Translations under genes and position numbers: made by a program
The notes under the pieces: model-generated
Databases searched by the model: none
What the model saw: only the letters and a program-made list of their open reading frames with translations
Told to the model about the DNA's origin: nothing
NCBI RefSeq assembly: GCF_009730915.1
Contig: NW_024086423.1
Span: 62,001 to 126,000 of the forward strand
DNA: 64,000 nt
Source: Dioscorea cayenensis subsp. rotundata
Taxonomy: Eukaryota > Streptophyta > Magnoliopsida > Dioscoreales > Dioscoreaceae
Direction of reading: 5' to 3'
Part shown: positions 24,968-64,000 of the stretch, piece by piece
How positions within the stretch are numbered: position 1 is the stretch's first letter
Layout of the letters: each line of letters opens with the position of its first letter

Positions 24968-26803
24968 ATGGCGCTCGTCCTTCGCCTTCGTCGAGCCATA
25001 GCGCTCTCCTCCTCCCTCATCCATCATCCTCCTCTCACCTCCTCCTCCTCCTCCTTGTCTTCTTCTTGTCCCCCTCTCCTGAAACCCCTTCTACGATCTT
25101 CCCTTCTCGGAAATCCTAGCTCTCAGCCCATCACCCAGGTTCGCTCCTTCCGGTCGTCGATCCCGGTGGAGATCCGGAGGTGGGAAGGTGGAGAAGAGGA
25201 TAAGATCAAACCGGATGAGATCTTATTCGAAGGGTGTGACTACAACCACTGGCTCATCACCATGGACTTCCCGAAGGACCCCAAGCCCACGCCGGAGGAG
25301 ATGGTCGAGACCTACGTCCAGACTGCCGCTAAAGTTATTGGAAGGTAATTCTAATTTCCGAAGTTGAGACATTTTCGTTGTTGTACAGTAGTTTTCGCTC
25401 GCTTGGGGTTTGAATCTTCAGATTGTTGGGAAATGGCCATTTTTTTAAAAATCTTTATAATTGTTCATTGAGAATCTGATTTTAACAATCTTCGTAAGCC
25501 TTTTTCTGCTAATTTTTAGCCTTTAACTTGATAAATTGTTTAGATTTGTGTGTGTATTTTTTTAATAGATTAGGTTAATGTTTGGGATTGTGGGTTGCAG
25601 TGTAGAGGAGGCAAAGAAGAAGATGTATGCCTGTAGTACCACTACTTATCAAGGTTTTCAAGTAATGGTGTCCGAGGAGGAGTCTGAAAAGTTCAAAGGT
25701 GAGTCTTGAAAGGGAACAGGAGAACCTATTCCAGCAGTTTTGTGCATACTAGTGAATTGCTTGTGAGGTTAATGCTTGTGGTTTTGTTTGTTGGAATCAG
25801 GATTGCCTGGAGTTGTCTTTGTGCTGCCGGACTCTTACATTGATCCTGTGAACAAGGAGTATGGAGGTTTGTTGCTTCTTGATCATCTTTTATTTATTTA
25901 TTTTATAAATATCAAAGATGGATTGTTTTAGTGTTTTATTGAAAACTTCCAGGTGATAAGTATGATAATGGAGTTATTACTCCTAGACCTCCCCCAATTC
26001 AATATGGCAGACAAGGAAGATATGGTGATAGAAACAGGAATTATGATCGGCCAAGGTATGATAGCCCAAGGGACGCAAGGCCAATGCCTCAAGGAAGGCA
26101 ACCTTATGATCGCCAGGGACCCATGCAAGGAGACGGAAGAAACTATGCTCCTCAGCAGAACTATGGTCCACCAGGTGATAGGAGGGATTTTGGTCCTCCT
26201 GGGCAGGCTAGAGACTTTGGTGATGCCAATCAGGGAATGAGGAGAGATCCGATGCCTTCATATTCAAGAGATCCTAATCAAGGAGGAAATTTTGCCTCTC
26301 AAGGTCAAGCAGGAGATCAAAGATATGCTGGTTCCCCAGGTGTTGGAGATTATGGTCAGAGATCAGGCCCGGGATATTCTGGGGATAGCAGGCAAGGATC
26401 TGGCCCAGGGTTTAGTGGTGACTACAGACAGGGATCAGGTCCTGGTTACAGTGGAGGTTATCAACAGGGATCAGGTCCTGGTTATGGTGGAGGCTACCAA
26501 CAGGGATCAGGTCCTGGCTATGGTGGAGGCAACCAGCAGGGATCAGGTCCTGGCTATGGTGGAGGCTACCAACAGGGATCATCAGGCCCTGGTTATGGCG
26601 GAGGCTACCAACAGGGATCATCAGGCCCTGGTTATAGCGGAGGCTACCAACAGGGATCATCAGGCCCTGGTAACCAACAGGGGTCAGGACCTGGGTACAG
26701 TGGGGATTTCAGACAAGGCTCAGGTGGTTTTGGTGAAGAGAAGAGGGAAGAAGCAGGATATGGCTATGGGCAAGGGTCAGGTTCTGGTCATGGGCAGAGC
26801 TAG
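24968..26803 (+). CDS. MORF8: Multiple organellar RNA editing factor, MORF8/RIP1-like
   Basis: Four exons: 24968-25344, 25601-25698, 25801-25866 and 25953-26803; 463 aa. The N-terminus (Arg/Ser/Leu-rich, to about residue 60) is an organelle targeting peptide. The MORF box runs about 85-185: [20 protein letters not shown], then [40 protein letters not shown] and [18 protein letters not shown] proteins bind PPR editing factors to support C-to-U editing in mitochondria and plastids. The tail after residue 190 is rich in Arg/Tyr/Gln, then has about ten 12-13-residue QGSGPGY(S/G)GGYQ units, as in MORF8/RIP1, which is dual-targeted. Its possible partners (DYW PPR proteins) include the next gene, though only as a class relationship. 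A likely 3' UTR intron follows. Confidence 0.92.
26365..26725 (+). repeat. In-frame minisatellite encoding the MORF Gly/Gln tail
   Basis: About ten tandem 36-39-bp units. Three neighbouring units carry an extra TCA (QGSSGPG), and one is shortened to QGSSGPGNQ. The units stay in frame, so length changes alter only repeat number. Confidence 0.9.
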
Positions 26804-50575: not shown

Positions 50576-51214
50576 TAAAAGATAGAAATTTGATTTAGTG
50601 CATTACTTGGGTCAAGACAATAAAATTGATAGATAATGCTCATCTTCTTCACCATTGTTCTCTTAACTTTTATTTGGCATCAATCTTCCAAATACTGGGA
50701 AACAAACATGGAATGTGGAGTTTTATTATTAGTTTAATAAATTTCCTTTTAGGTTATGATTTTTGTAGGCATCTCACCCTTATGATTGTGATGTTTTTCT
50801 TGCCATTTTTTCTTTTGTTTAATTGCATCCAGAGTGTTTACCACAACCTCTTCTATTCTCTTTTTTTTTTTGTGACAATTAAATTAAGGATTTGCACGAG
50901 TATAGTGAAGAATGTGAATTATGAACAATTTCCCTTTCAAGCAAGGCACAGTACAAGCAATCTACAAGCAATTGAGGCACTTGCCAAGTCTTTTATTTTT
51001 TTTATTTTATTTTTTTTTATAGTATAGTTACTATTAGGTGTCCTACAAGGAAAGCGGATGAGCAGTTAAGTAACTCTGGAAGTCAAGCCTTTTCCTTCCT
51101 TGATTTAGTTCCTTAACACAAGCAATCTCAAAGTCTTCAAACTAGCCGACTTTCATGTTCAAATGATCTGGAGAAGCTAAACATCATTATATTTGAGTCC
51201 CACTTTTGGTATAT

Positions 51215-51318
51215 GGGAAAGTAAACTTTGCAGAGAAGTAAAGCTTGTGAAAGACTTTCACAAGTTAGATTTTAATATGAACTATGTAAAGTAATAGTTT
51301 TTATGCAATTACTTTCCC
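51215..51318. mobile_element. Small inverted-repeat element (MITE-like)
   Basis: GGGAAAGTAA at the left and TTACTTTCCC at the right are perfect 10-bp inverted ends around 104 bp, with a second internal palindrome (GTGAAAGACTTTCAC). A related GGAAAGTAATTG...AAGTCTTTCACTGC piece is near 56553. Confidence 0.5.
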
Positions 51319-51660
51319 TTTGAACAGGGAAAATGATTCATAGGGGAGAGGGTGTGAAAAGGGTTATATAGTGGCTGTGAAAATGTGAGACAAGTGAAAT
51401 TCCAATACTACCCCCTTATTTAAGTAAAAAAAATTTCTTTATCTTTTCTTGTCTTTGAAAACCATAAAGCAAAACTTCTCCGCTTTTCTTTCATTTCCAA
51501 AATCTTAGGGCAAGAGGGATCACTCCTTAGATCTTTTCTTATATTTTTCTTACTTTTTCAATATTTTTTTTTGTGGTGATACTTGTTTTTTGTTATTTTT
51601 TTGCCTTTTTGGAATAGGATTTTGGTTTTATGTATGTTTTTAATGAGTTCATTTAATGTA

Positions 51661-51911
51661 CTTCCTCCATTCCTTTTTATCTGTCATGGTTAACCGAATC
51701 TCACTTACCAAGAAATTTAGTTATTTCACAAATTTTTATAAAAAATTACTTATCTTTTCAAAATTACCCCTAATTTATATTTTCACATTTCTCTCTTATA
51801 TTTAATTCCAAGAAGAGAGTTGAATATAGTGTTAAGGGTAGTTTTAGAAAAAAAATATTAATAAATGCTTCTTAATGTTAGAAAATGACAGATAAAAAGG
51901 AACGGAGGGAG
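51661..51911. mobile_element. Stowaway MITE
   Basis: The left end CTTCCTCCATTCCTTTTTAT and the inverted right end CTCCCTCCGTTCCTTTTTAT are both followed by CTGTCAT, with TA on both flanks (51659-51660, 51912-51913). Confidence 0.88.
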
Positions 51912-51980
51912 TACAAGGGTTTGGTGGTGGGATATTGACTTTTATATGGTTTTTGTTTTTGTTTTAAAATTTTAACTTGA

Positions 51981-52382
51981 GTGATCAAGGGCAAATTGAG
52001 AATGGATATAACTTTACATATAAACTTATTCAAACCAAATGAAGGAATTAACTTTACATGCATTTCAAATACAATTTTCATTATACAATTTTCAGCACTA
52101 ACAAGTTCCAATTTTTTAAATCTACTGCCAGGTGAGCCATACAAGGATAGGGAATTTAACTTATGTTGATCTCTGGCTGATCATGATTCACATGCTATGA
52201 GGGATATCGACCCAATTGGGCCTTCTATTTCAGAGGTAGGAACTGGAACATCTTGTGATCCACATACCAGCATCACTATGGAACCAGCGCAGCTGGGCTT
52301 ACTTATTGGCAAATCAATTTCAGAGACAATACAGAAATTACAGGAGAATTTTTCTGTTAATTCACCAAACAAACCAATCTAA
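51981..52382 (+). pseudogene. MP (BC1)-like fossil region of the endogenous geminivirus, 3' part
   Basis: The clearest match is the tail: RDIDPIGPSISEVG and SITMEPAQLGLLIGKSISET, against family text of the type YRDLTRLGTSVLDPG and SITMSVAQLNELVRSTVQE. LPGEP (family: RPGES) and KGKLRM (family: KGKLKL) upstream are weaker support. It faces the NSP-like region tail to tail, exactly as BC1 faces BV1 in DNA-B. Broken fossil; the 5' part of the gene is absent. Confidence 0.62.
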
Positions 52383-52643
52383 AATGTATGCCGCTGTGCG
52401 GCCATATTTAAATATAATATGTAGGCTACAATGGTTATTTACAGGATTATGTATTTTACAGTTTATGTAAAAATTTTCAAGGATTTTAATGTATTTGTAT
52501 GAGTATGTATATATTTTGTTATAGAGATGTAGTAATCTTTAATTTATTCCTGTTTTTGTATTTGTTTTGTTATATATTTATCTGAATGAATTTTAACAAG
52601 AAATACATGCAATGTACATAATTCAGTTACTTTAAATACATCA

Positions 52644-53354
52644 TTACACATAACCAATCCTTGTATTAATACCCAACTGTACAGAAGTGGTTCCTTCACT
52701 ATACCAAGTACAATACAGAAGCAATGCATTCTTCAATGTGTTGGTGTATTGCCCGGTCTTTATTTTAGTTTCATCACGGAACACTGATCATACCGGATAC
52801 CTAGATGACAATTTAATATACCGCCGTATGTCTTCAATATACAAGGCACCTGGTTTATTGATTACAATTTTCTTCTTACAGATTAGGGAGTATCTTGATC
52901 TTAGGGATGACTTAATTAATGCATCTGCTGTGTAGTTTTCACTAACATTAAATATATCCTTAAAATCTGGAAGTGTCATTCCTCGTGGTCTCATGTCTTT
53001 CACTACAAATACACTAAGAACGCCCTGTAGTAAATATCTTGACTTATCATCAACAACCATCATATTTTGTTCTGGCAATTTCATAACTTTAACAGTTCCG
53101 GTTAAATACAAGGATCTCAGCATTATGATTGATTTCTCCCTCTCGTTATCTTTTATACCAAATGATGGTAAGCTGAGATAGTTTATTGACCTATTACCAG
53201 GTTTAACAAGGTTTGCACCGAATTTAATAGGTTTTGTAATATAATTGATTTTAGATCACAGTAATGGTTTTTTTGTGATGATCCCAGTCAGTAGCCCACG
53301 AGAGTGCTGACGTCTGCCGTAGAACGGTTGTCTGTATGGATATTTGTTCTTCAT
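52644..53354 (-). pseudogene. NSP (BV1)-like fossil region of the endogenous geminivirus
   Basis: The minus-strand peptide text resembles begomovirus nuclear shuttle protein in order: a basic start (MKNKYPYRQPFYGRRQHSRG), LRSLYLTGTVKVMKL (family: LKRLRFKGTVKIERV), GVLSVFVVKDMRPRG (family: GVFSLVVVVDRKPH), a DIFN...DALIKSSLRSRYSLI stretch (family: TPSLKDRFYIRH), and NTLKNALLLYCTW (family: NISKNALLVYYCW). NSP carries viral DNA out of the nucleus. The region is broken and is treated as a fossil; it need not be expressed. Confidence 0.72.
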
Positions 53355-53782
53355 ATACAGGGTATTATACCAAAGCTAGTATATGGTTGTCTGTTCCTAT
53401 AATACATATACATGTTAGGGAATGCCATCTCTGCATGTAATAATAACCGTTGGCTAGTAATTTATATAGGACTTATATAACACTGTTATTTGCGTAAATT
53501 ATATGCTAAAGGCTAGTATTAATAGATATTAGTACCTACTATCCTGTACTACTTATTTTAATACAAAACTATTAGTACTAATGATATTTATTTACATAAA
53601 CCCGGTTTATATGTACTCAAATGAAAGAGAGATTACTTACATTAGACTGTCGCCTGAGAAATAATTTCTCTATGCATCACGTGGTGGATCCCACAAACAC
53701 TACGTACACAAGATTGATCCAACTTTAATTCAAAACTGACCAATCTGGCAATGCCATGTGGCGGTACGGAGCGGCCATCCGC

Positions 53783-55410
53783 AGCACACGTATAAAAATT
53801 TAAAAATAAAAATAAAATTTACAATTATTTCATTTTTCTCTAAAGTAAGAGAAATATGTTGTGTCGACTGCAATTAAAAGGGTAATAATTGTGAATGTTT
53901 GTTATAATTTAAGCTATTAATCATTCTCTTAATTTTTGTGATAAAAATCATAAATGATATTTATCATATGGAGATTTTAGATAATAATCAAGGTATTTAG
54001 GGGATGATTGTATGAAGAATTAAGGGGTGGATTAAGCCTAGTTTAAAATTTTGACAAATGCTCTTTTTATGGTTTAGTCCCTTTTTTTATATAAATATAG
54101 AGGTTAATTTAGATTAAGGTACTCCCACTACAAGTCTGCAACCTCGAAATAGCTTAATCTAGATTATGAGACATACAAAAATTTTTATCACATTTTTTTT
54201 TGTTATTAGAAATTTCAGTTGTTTCTTTTGCATCCTTAACTCATCACCCTTTTGTGAGCGAGTGCTTGTGGTTTTTTTTTCTTAATCTTTAACCTATTAT
54301 TTTGTGATTTTTTAGGATAGCGTGTGTTTTTATAATAATGGAGATAACAATGATACAAATATAATACAAATGTCACCAATTAACTATAGTTAAATAATTT
54401 TTATATGTATTATTATTAAAAGTATGAATTATCATATATTTTGGTTTGATTCTTGTGTTATTTAATTTTGTTCCAACAGTGTTATTATATTATATTTTAT
54501 ATATTATATTAAGTATTATGCAATAGCTGCATTATAAGTTGAAAATGAAATTATATGGCTAATTAAATTAGTTTAAGCAACTGATGTTATTGAAGGCATT
54601 GTTGTTTTTTTGCTTTAATTGGCAAGTTTGGGTGGTCAATCAATTTGTTTTCTACTGGCAAATAAAGGTAGATTTTGGAGAATTAAATAGGCTAATTTAA
54701 TAAAATATTGTGTTTTTTTAAATTATATCCCAAAATACGCATTTCCATAATTATTTATAGAAATGCGCATTTTATATTTTTTTATTATTTTTTTAAATTA
54801 GCCGGTCCCATTGTGGTTTTTTAATATTTAAATTTATTTTTTAAAAAAACTAAAGGCCTATTATTTTTTTAATATTAAGTTTTTATTTTTTAAAAAACTG
54901 CGGCCCGGTAGTTTTTAAATTAAAAATATTTTACATCCAAACCCTTATAATTTTCATTAATTTTTCTTATAACTTATTTTTTCTCACTTCTACTATATTA
55001 TTTTTACTTTCACTAATTGTAACCGGCTGTTAATAATTTAAATAAATAATTTTAATATTTTTTCATTATAAGGGGTTGTTGGGATGAATTATTTGTGGCA
55101 TATGGCACCTACCCCATTCATGAGAGCCATTGGATGAAATTGATCTTGGGCATCCATTTGTTAGGTGGAGGCCTATATAAACCCTCAAAGTTCCTTTTCT
55201 AAAACACACAAGTATTTCTATAAGAAAAAAATTATCAATAAAAAAACTACAATGACAAAAATTTTAAAGAAGAGCTTCTCTCTATATTTGGGTACTTATT
55301 TTAGAGTATAAAATTATGGCATAATATAGGTATTATGGCATAAAAAAATATTCCACTTAGAGTGGAATATTTTCCCATTGCAAAAAGTCTCTCTCTTTTT
55401 TAATCCAGCC
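53783..55410. other. AT-rich spacer right of the geminivirus fossil
   Basis: Very AT-rich. It contains TATATAAACCC near 55171, which could be a promoter, but I see no supported gene after it. A short palindrome ATATTCCACTTAGAGTGGAATAT is split at 55348-55370. Inverted text AATTATGGCATA (55310) and TATGCCATAATT (55582) hints at MITE ends. Confidence 0.4.
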
Positions 55411-63434: not shown

Positions 63435-64000
63435 TTGATACCTCCGCTCAGAGTTCTTTTACATGTAGCCAATCATGCAGTCCTGTTGTTTTCATGCCAT
63501 GTCCTGCAGGACTATGCCAGCATGCTTACAGTTACCGGTCAATCACAGTAATCAAATAAACAGATAGAATCCACTAGTGACTATATTTTCTGTTTGTTAA
63601 TTTCAAAGATTGGCGTAATCCAGTTGTTTGATACCTCTGCTCGGAGTTCATTTACAAGTGGTGGCCGATCATGCAGTGTTGTTGTTTTCATGCCATTTCC
63701 TGCAGGACTATGCCTCCAAGTTACAGTTACTGATCAATAACAGTAATCGAATAAACCAATAGAATGCACTAGTGATTATATTTTCTGTTTGTTAATTTCA
63801 AAGATTGGTGTAATCCAGTTGTTTGATACCTCTTCTCAGAGTTCATTTACAAGTGGCAGCCGATCAGGCAGTCCTGTTGTTTTCATGCCATGTCCTGCAG
63901 GACTATGCCAGCATGCTTACAGTTACCGGTCAATCACAGTAATCAAATAAACAGATAGAATCCACTAGTGACTATATTTTCTGTTTGTTAATTTCAAAGA
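63435..64000. repeat. Three tandem ~194-bp units, cut by the window edge
   Basis: Units start with TTGATACCTC at 63435, 63628 and 63823 (periods 193 and 195). Each contains TCATGCCAT(G/T)TCCTGCAGGA, CAGTAATC(A/G)AATAAAC and TATTTTCTGTTTGTTAATTT. Units 1 and 3 agree over long stretches where unit 2 differs. The array starts just after Ulp1 copy D and continues beyond the window. Confidence 0.92.

What the first reader, a model, noticed from the sequence alone, without database searches (positions are those of the whole stretch)
51975..53782. Endogenous geminivirus fossil derived from a DNA-B-like (movement) component
The minus-strand text at 52644-53354 follows the order of begomovirus NSP motifs (GTVKV, GVLSVFVVKD, LRSRY, TLKNALLLYCTW). 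The facing plus-strand text ending at 52382 resembles the MP tail (SITMEPAQL...SISET). The opposed arrangement and an origin-stem arm at the far end match DNA-B. Endogenous geminivirus DNA reported in plants has mostly been Rep/DNA-A-type, so an NSP/MP-type fossil would be unusual. It would imply that bipartite-like geminiviruses infected this lineage long ago. It is broken and old.
Basis: partly seen in the sequence, partly recalled or inferred. Interest (0 to 1): 0.88.

Follow-up and report, generated by a model that had tools for sequence, protein, structure and literature searches.

The report
Fossil half of a capsid-less virus
A plant genome, probably a yam, carries a broken copy of the movement half of an ancient two-part plant virus, and this copy belongs to a large family with no recognisable coat gene whose copies often join the chromosome at the very point where the replication enzyme cuts.

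Summary
Window 52091-53784 is a decayed, 3'-truncated DNA-B-type geminivirus copy: an NSP-like gene (52644-53354, minus; PF00844 E 9.6e-15; two internal stops) faces the last ~97 codons of MP (52091-52382, plus). Its far end is an arm of the origin hairpin, cut within 1 nt of the Rep nick. It is no lone fossil: the genome holds about 83 B loci (NSP/MP) and 138 A loci (Rep/REn). A and B share a common region (188 nt, 88% in one array), and 33 of 83 B loci have an A hit within 5 kb (0.22 expected). No coat gene was detected; A units carry an undescribed ~100-aa ORF at the coat position. Twelve of 13 free 5' ends in a pattern-selected set sit on the nick, against one free 3' end at 43 sites. NSP and MP pieces show purifying selection (dN/dS 0.25, 0.17). 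Yam EGV1/EGV2 (Rep/REn, no coat) are published, and D. alata NSPs get one sentence; I found no description of the B family, the ORF or the end asymmetry. Reading: new variant of a known kind, a coat-less two-component rolling-circle replicon that integrates by its Rep-cut 5' end.

The parts
52091..53784 (-). whole inserted element: DNA-B-type copy, virion sense on the minus strand, 5' end at 53784, 3' end (truncated) at 52091; 1,694 bp, about two thirds of a ~2.49-kb unit
   Evidence: blastn against loci; unit length 2,489 bp in C273 and 2,494 bp between origins in C18
52644..53354 (-). NSP (BV1)-like pseudogene, one frame, internal stops at 53256-53258 and 52788-52790
   Evidence: PF00844 E 9.6e-15 and 8.3e-5 for two pieces searched apart; 101 matches of the 155-aa piece in the genome, itself included; frame and stops
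52091..52382 (+). C-terminal ~97 codons of an MP (BC1)-like gene, one internal stop at 52167-52169; the N-terminal part is absent (element truncated)
   Evidence: 62 matches of the 70-aa tail, itself included; aligned to PF00845-positive loci
53721..53784 (-). 5' half of the common region shared by A and B units, ending with the 3' arm of the origin hairpin
   Evidence: block also found inverted beside other copies; shared by A and B units
53770..53784 (-). 3' arm of the origin stem; junction within 1 nt of the Rep nick site TAATATT^AC
   Evidence: right flank has a paralog on C7 without the element (alignment from 53801; by eye a shared ACACGTA at 53786-53792)

Best explanation
The locus is a dead, 3'-truncated copy of the B component (NSP + MP) of a two-component geminivirus-derived replicon resident in this plant lineage. 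The A component (known in yams as EGV1/EGV2) encodes Rep, REn and a small virion-sense ORF, and has no detectable coat protein. Rep acts in trans on the shared common region, nicks TAATATT^AC in both components and makes rolling-circle DNA. Linear products with the Rep-cut 5' end are joined to chromosomal breaks, so the 5' end is often exact and the 3' end varies, in the manner of T-DNA; units are also joined in tandem or head to head. Shown here: the B identity, the A and B families, the shared origin, absence of a detectable coat gene, many 5' ends at the nick, purifying selection on pieces of NSP, MP and the small ORF. Inferred: that Rep made the ends and stayed attached to them; that NSP and MP were kept because moving DNA between nucleus, cytoplasm and cells (perhaps into meristem or germ line) was how the coat-less replicon persisted.
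For: PF00844 hit in the window. In the genome: 101 NSP-piece matches, 63 PF00845 MP matches, 140 PF00799 Rep matches, 141 PF01407 REn matches; these three families and PF00844 rang in 0 of 14 control genomes. All 60 of 60 PF00844 places lie within 700 bp of an NSP place, so no separate coat gene is seen. A units (2,495-2,496 bp between origins) and B units (2,489-2,494 bp) are of one size and share 188 nt at 88% in one array, 71-86% with B units elsewhere; the hairpin folds with z -6.0. 33 of 83 B loci lie within 5 kb of an A hit, 0.22 expected. Of 40 pattern-selected 5' halves, 27 continue leftward into an origin (23 flagged by script, 4 judged by eye), 13 do not, and 12 of these 13 begin at the nick with at most 1 mismatch in 5 nt. 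Of 43 selected 3' halves, 42 run on across the nick and 1 does not. Among loci not chosen by that pattern, 13 of 22 lone 5' halves reach within 1 nt of the nick. Median dN/dS 0.25 NSP (360 pairs), 0.17 MP (113 pairs), 0.31 small ORF (128 pairs). The NSP tree is ladder-like with terminal branches from 0 to 0.16.
Against: No exogenous NSP or CP was available to place the gene: the viral-contig scan found none, and the meaningful PDB relatives are capsid proteins of the same Pfam family; NSP identity rests on position beside MP and on only weak similarity to capsid proteins. The window contig has no Rep or REn hit, and 50 of 83 B loci have no A hit within 5 kb (with 117 of 140 Rep and 135 of 141 REn places entered). 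The 5'-end pattern requires bases from +6 on, so ends cutting deeper were not sampled, 9 of 22 lone 5' halves end 2-15 nt from the nick or cannot be aligned to it, from divergence or true truncation. Four of the 13 free ends adjoin another copy rather than other DNA; the left flanks of the rest were not tested for being host DNA. dN/dS rises in close pairs for MP and the small ORF (0.41, 0.70 below dS 0.2) and barely for NSP (0.27), as expected for decay after insertion, so present function is not shown. The A/B co-divergence test is weak (Mantel r 0.48, 227 of 5040 permutations as high, 7 loci). The TrAP search is uninformative as a negative.
Confidence: 0.78

Rival explanations
1. Ordinary repeated integration of an exogenous bipartite begomovirus-like virus over a long time. 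The coat gene is missing because it sat on a component that did not integrate, or because a helper virus supplied the coat.
For: Purifying selection on NSP and MP is what a spreading virus needs; the deep divergence of copies (about 31-91% aa identity) and ladder-like tree fit serial fossils of an evolving virus; MP has no obvious use for a purely nuclear element.
Against: 140 Rep and 141 REn matches but no coat gene; the coat position of the A unit looked at holds another ORF, conserved near REn elsewhere. Filloux et al. 2015 also found no coat gene in yam units (PMC5014472 section 3.2).
Confidence: 0.3
2. A Helitron-like transposon made from geminivirus parts: Rep moves A and B units from chromosome to chromosome, and NSP/MP are passengers.
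For: Rolling-circle origin hairpin, many dispersed copies, tandem arrays; one unit (C273:47842-50330) has both ends at the nick. Filloux et al. propose it for EGV1/EGV2 (section 4 read).
Against: Ends are asymmetric: 13 free 5' ends against 1 free 3' end, whereas Helitrons have two defined ends (recalled); NSP and MP pieces are under constraint, which passengers would not be.
Confidence: 0.15
3. The PF00844 gene facing MP is really the coat protein of the element, moved onto the B component, so the element is not coat-less.
For: CP and NSP are one Pfam family; a profile of the piece matches solved capsid proteins (best E 7.7e-8).
Against: The match is only ~35 bits over ~60 residues, whereas Rep and REn of yam EGVs are 57-59% identical to begomovirus ones (PMC5014472 section 3.2), so a begomovirus-type CP should match far better; the position, convergent with MP, is that of NSP.
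Confidence: 0.1
4. Chance resemblance or a host gene family.
For: None found.
Against: Pfam E 9.6e-15; adjacent MP and origin; 0 of 14 control genomes ring for PF00845, PF00799, PF00844 and PF01407.
Confidence: 0.01

Closest known systems
Yam endogenous geminivirus elements EGV1/EGV2 (Filloux et al. 2015, PMC5014472; sections 3.2 and 4 read, abstract and other passages seen)
   Same: A-type units with Rep and REn, no detectable coat protein or TrAP; EGV1 with TAATATTAC hairpin and tandem arrays; reported as partly transcribed
   Different: The text never uses DNA-B, NSP or nuclear shuttle (0 occurrences each); no second component, no ORF at the coat position and no analysis of insertion ends in what I read; it supposes that all genes but rep and ren were lost
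Bipartite begomovirus DNA-B (Geminiviridae; features recalled)
   Same: NSP on the virion strand and MP on the complementary strand converging, common region shared with DNA-A, unit of about 2.5-2.6 kb
   Different: Integrated and decayed; the partner A units lack a detectable CP; NSP divergent
Geminivirus-related DNA (GRD) of Nicotiana (passages in PMC5014472 and PMC3187698)
   Same: Repeated endogenous geminivirus units with rep and origin
   Different: Truncated rep and an intergenic fragment only; no NSP/MP partner mentioned in the passages seen
Olea europaea geminivirus (PMC8000510, passages seen)
   Same: Bipartite geminivirid outside established genera with an unusual DNA-B
   Different: Exogenous, has CP and TrAP; its MP is virion-sense
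Helitrons (recalled)
   Same: Rolling-circle mechanism, hairpin, dispersed copies
   Different: RepHel protein not sought here; ends asymmetric here

Membership tests
Begomovirus-type DNA-B | NSP-like gene (PF00844 family) | tested here: met
   CP versus NSP not resolved by sequence, see rivals
Begomovirus-type DNA-B | MP (PF00845) on the opposite strand, convergent with NSP | tested here: met
   In sister loci PF00845 up to E 6.9e-69; in the window only the tail, by alignment
Begomovirus-type DNA-B | Common region with origin hairpin shared with a Rep-encoding component | tested here: met
   188 nt at 88% between an A and a B unit of one array; hairpin; the window keeps only the 5' half
Begomovirus-type DNA-B | Partner DNA-A encodes CP | tested here: not met
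   60 of 60 PF00844 places are NSP places; so it is called a DNA-B-like component and not filed as a begomovirus
Yam EGV1 lineage | Rep+REn units with TAATATTAC, no CP or TrAP | tested here: met
   TrAP negative is weak
Yam EGV1 lineage | Sequence identity to deposited EGV1 | not testable with these tools
   The GenBank records KJ629282-KJ629285 are in none of the collections offered
Endogenous viral element | Junction with host DNA | tested here: met
   Left flank carries a high-copy repeat; right flank has a paralog on C7 with no hit to the element
Helitron | Two precise ends | tested here: not met
   13 free 5' ends against 1 free 3' end
Helitron | RepHel helicase protein, insertion between A and T | not tested
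   not searched

The most novel reading that the evidence does not exclude
A geminivirus lineage gave up its capsid and became a permanent, vertically inherited two-component DNA replicon of yams. It replaced the coat gene by a new small gene, kept NSP and MP under selection to move naked DNA between nucleus and cells, and for a long time has been depositing copies in the chromosomes by a T-DNA-like reaction of its Rep-capped 5' ends.
Probability: 0.35. Interest if true: 0.88.

Novelty: new variant of a known kind. Interest (0 to 1): 0.64.

Why it matters
It indicates that the yam-type endogenous geminiviruses are two-component and that the movement half was amplified and kept under selection while no coat gene is detectable, against the published supposition that everything but rep and ren was lost. 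The precise 5' and variable 3' ends give a concrete, testable mechanism for how rolling-circle DNA enters plant chromosomes. The conserved unknown ORF at the coat position is a new gene to study. The terminal branch of the window copy (0.079 per site) exceeds half of the D. alata-D. rotundata KS of 0.064 (PMC9010478 passage), so if the host is one of them the insertion should be shared by both species: a datable virus fossil.

Tried and rejected
Chance or host gene: rejected. A viral-contig scan with the NSP alignment for exogenous relatives: 227 pattern matches, none confirmed. The V-ORF (small ORF at the coat position) against Pfam, PDB and PHROGs: nothing convincing; AlphaFold model mean pLDDT 56, helices only, too weak for a fold search, which I did not run. 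Host origin of the V-ORF: 107 of 116 places lie within 2.5 kb of the Rep/REn places entered; the other 9 were not examined further. Empty site on C7: only the right flank matches. Target-site duplication: none recognised by eye. PF01440 TrAP: nothing rang anywhere, so no proof of absence. Species name: not established by any search; yam is inferred from about 20 chromosome-size contigs and the EGV1-like architecture; a search for the assembly size found nothing.

Limits of counts: the genome tool scores only its best candidates, so match counts are lower bounds. In one search I entered 67 of 101 NSP places, 51 of 140 Rep and 135 of 141 REn places (the mistyped one corrected). dN/dS used 30 of 101 NSP, 20 of 63 MP and 20 of 116 V-ORF places; the V-ORF ones were stop-free within the piece. 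The tree uses the same 30 NSP pieces, with a root that I chose. The 6 two-mismatch places were not examined. Of 17 places that the script called free ends, I set 4 aside by eye as degenerate or differently spaced origins.

Full report
What was checked. The window is G000:C32:62001-126000 of a 584-Mb genome in 2249 contigs, about 20 of chromosome size. The finding's motifs are in the sequence. The piece 52788-53255(-) matches PF00844 at E 9.6e-15, and 52644-52787(-) matches the C-terminal part of the same profile at E 8.3e-5; the MP tail 52170-52382(+) has no Pfam hit of its own. The NSP pieces lie in one frame, 53354-52644, with internal stops at 53256-53258 and 52788-52790; the MP-tail frame has one at 52167-52169.

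Extent. blastn of window 51000-54800 against the loci (58 besides the window's own two; they overlap one another) finds DNA homology in 53 of 58; in 37 it starts at 52091 and in 33 it ends at 53779-53788. Two hits fall outside, both to one C12 locus and in inverted orientation in the left flank; they look like a host repeat. So the element is 1,694 bp, 52091-53784, not 51975-53782. Against a 2,489-bp unit (C273:47842-50330) it keeps the 5' two thirds: origin arm, NSP and the last ~97 codons of MP. The left flank holds a high-copy repeat with inverted ends (about 51659-51915; 40 of 1199 candidates scored, 87-92% identical). The right flank has a paralog on C7 (alignment from 53801, by eye from 53786) with no hit to the element or to the left flank.

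The family. One genome search each gave 101 NSP-piece matches, 62 MP-tail matches, 63 PF00845 matches, 140 PF00799 Rep matches, 60 PF00844 matches, 141 PF01407 REn matches and 0 PF01440 TrAP matches (uninformative because nothing rang in the controls either). PF00845, PF00799, PF00844 and PF01407 rang in 0 of 14 control genomes. All 60 of 60 PF00844 places lie within 700 bp of an NSP place: no separate coat-protein gene is detectable. Merging hits at 5 kb gives 83 B loci and about 138 A loci; 31 of 83 B loci have both NSP and MP hits; 33 of 83 have an A hit within 5 kb, against 0.22 expected from coverage. The array at C18:7.817-7.844 Mb holds B units (2,494 bp between origins) and A units (2,495-2,496 bp).

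The A partner. The coat position of one A unit (L061) holds no coat gene but a virion-sense ORF of about 100 codons. It has 116 matches in the genome, 92 of 116 within 1.5 kb of a REn place. Sixteen members align with 10 invariant columns, and no relative was found in Pfam, PDB or PHROGs. Filloux et al. 2015 (section 3.2) had already found yam EGV1 and EGV2 without CP and TrAP, with units of 2,642 bp (EGV1, D. alata) and fragments of about 2.9 kb (EGV2).

The origin and the ends. An A unit and a B unit of the C18 array share 188 nt at 88% around the hairpin; with B units elsewhere the A unit shares 71-86% over 64-191 nt, and one 102-nt block at 94%. The hairpin GCCATCCGCA-loop-TGCGGATGGC with TAATATT^AC folds far better than shuffles (z -6.0). 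In one search, 22 rows show a 5' half without a 3' half; 13 of 22 reach within 1 nt of the nick and 9 do not (2-15 nt, from divergence or truncation). To sample ends across the genome I searched for the sequence just right of the nick: 40 places, 0 in the reversed control, all fetched and read. In 23 the script saw an origin to the left; in 4 more I judged a degenerate or differently spaced origin by eye (C5:10049474, C8:10543173, C9:26765726, C13:3703800). Thirteen have something else on the left, and 12 of these 13 begin ACTGC (8) or differ from it by one base (4, the window among them). They represent 11 junctions, since C16:8630471 is a head-to-head joint read from both sides; C18:7817386 is another head-to-head joint and C806:145373 lies inside another copy. 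The thirteenth, C6:5698091, is unclear. The converse search for the sequence just left of the nick gave 43 places with at most one mismatch; 42 of 43 run on across the nick, one of these (C14:15584292) breaking about 20 nt later, and one, C273:50311, ends at the nick. So 5' ends are often exact and 3' ends hardly ever are. This is the pattern expected if a Rep molecule covalently linked to the 5' end (known for geminivirus Rep; recalled) accompanies the DNA into a chromosomal break, as VirD2 does for T-DNA (recalled). That step is inference.

Selection and time. Pairwise NG86 estimates on pieces: NSP, 30 copies, median dN/dS 0.25 over 360 pairs with dS 0.1-1.5; MP, 20 copies, 0.17 over 113 pairs; V-ORF, 20 stop-free copies, 0.31 over 128 pairs. 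For dS 0.02-0.2 the medians are 0.27 (NSP), 0.41 (MP) and 0.70 (V-ORF): constraint while the lineage replicated and decay after insertion, though the rise is slight for NSP. A FastTree tree of the 30 NSP pieces is ladder-like with terminal branches from 0 to 0.16; the window copy's is 0.079. D. alata and D. rotundata differ by a median KS of 0.064 (PMC9010478 passage), so if the host is such a yam the window insertion is probably older than their split. Distances among V-ORFs and among NSP pieces at seven A+B loci correlate weakly (r 0.48; 227 of 5040 permutations as high).

What is known. Searches of the paper library led to Filloux 2015 and Sharma 2020. The former never uses DNA-B, NSP or nuclear shuttle. 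The latter says in one sentence that potential nuclear shuttle proteins were found in D. alata and two tea varieties, with details in a supplementary table that I did not open (no supplement look-ups were allowed). The passages seen of a 2022 yam virus review list only EGV1, EGV2 and a presumed endogenous begomovirus record. I saw no description of a B component family, the shared common region, the V-ORF or the end asymmetry in these; most subscription papers are not in the library.

Verdict. The larger finding is a two-component, geminivirus-derived replicon family without a detectable coat gene and with Rep-defined 5' insertion ends. Whether it was a capsid-free vertically inherited replicon, a virus with a coat supplied elsewhere, or a transposon is open; I favour the first for the constraint on NSP and MP together with the lack of a detectable coat gene.

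Noticed in passing
51659-51915: High-copy MITE-like repeat with inverted ends in the left flank; 40 of 1199 candidates scored, 87-92% identical.
   Followed up: partly
L061:263-574 (G000:C18:7829962-7830273): Conserved ~100-aa virion-sense ORF at the coat-protein position of A units, 116 matches, no known relative found.
   Followed up: yes
G000:C10:7074494-7078071, C10:9123422-9128477, C13:3702956-3706251: Tandem arrays of roughly 820-860-bp units that carry the origin (in C10 with about the first 80 aa of Rep): subgenomic, defective-DNA-like repeats.
   Followed up: no
G000:C16:8630471 and C18:7817386: Head-to-head joints of two units at their Rep-nick 5' ends.
   Followed up: partly
G000:C9:26763027-26771084: Eight MP-tail fragments at roughly 1-kb spacing, another tandem array.
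   Followed up: no
63435-64000: 195-bp tandem repeat (2.9 copies) running to the window end.
   Followed up: no
26428-26659: 36-bp repeat, 6.3 copies; the unit is a multiple of three and may be coding.
   Followed up: no
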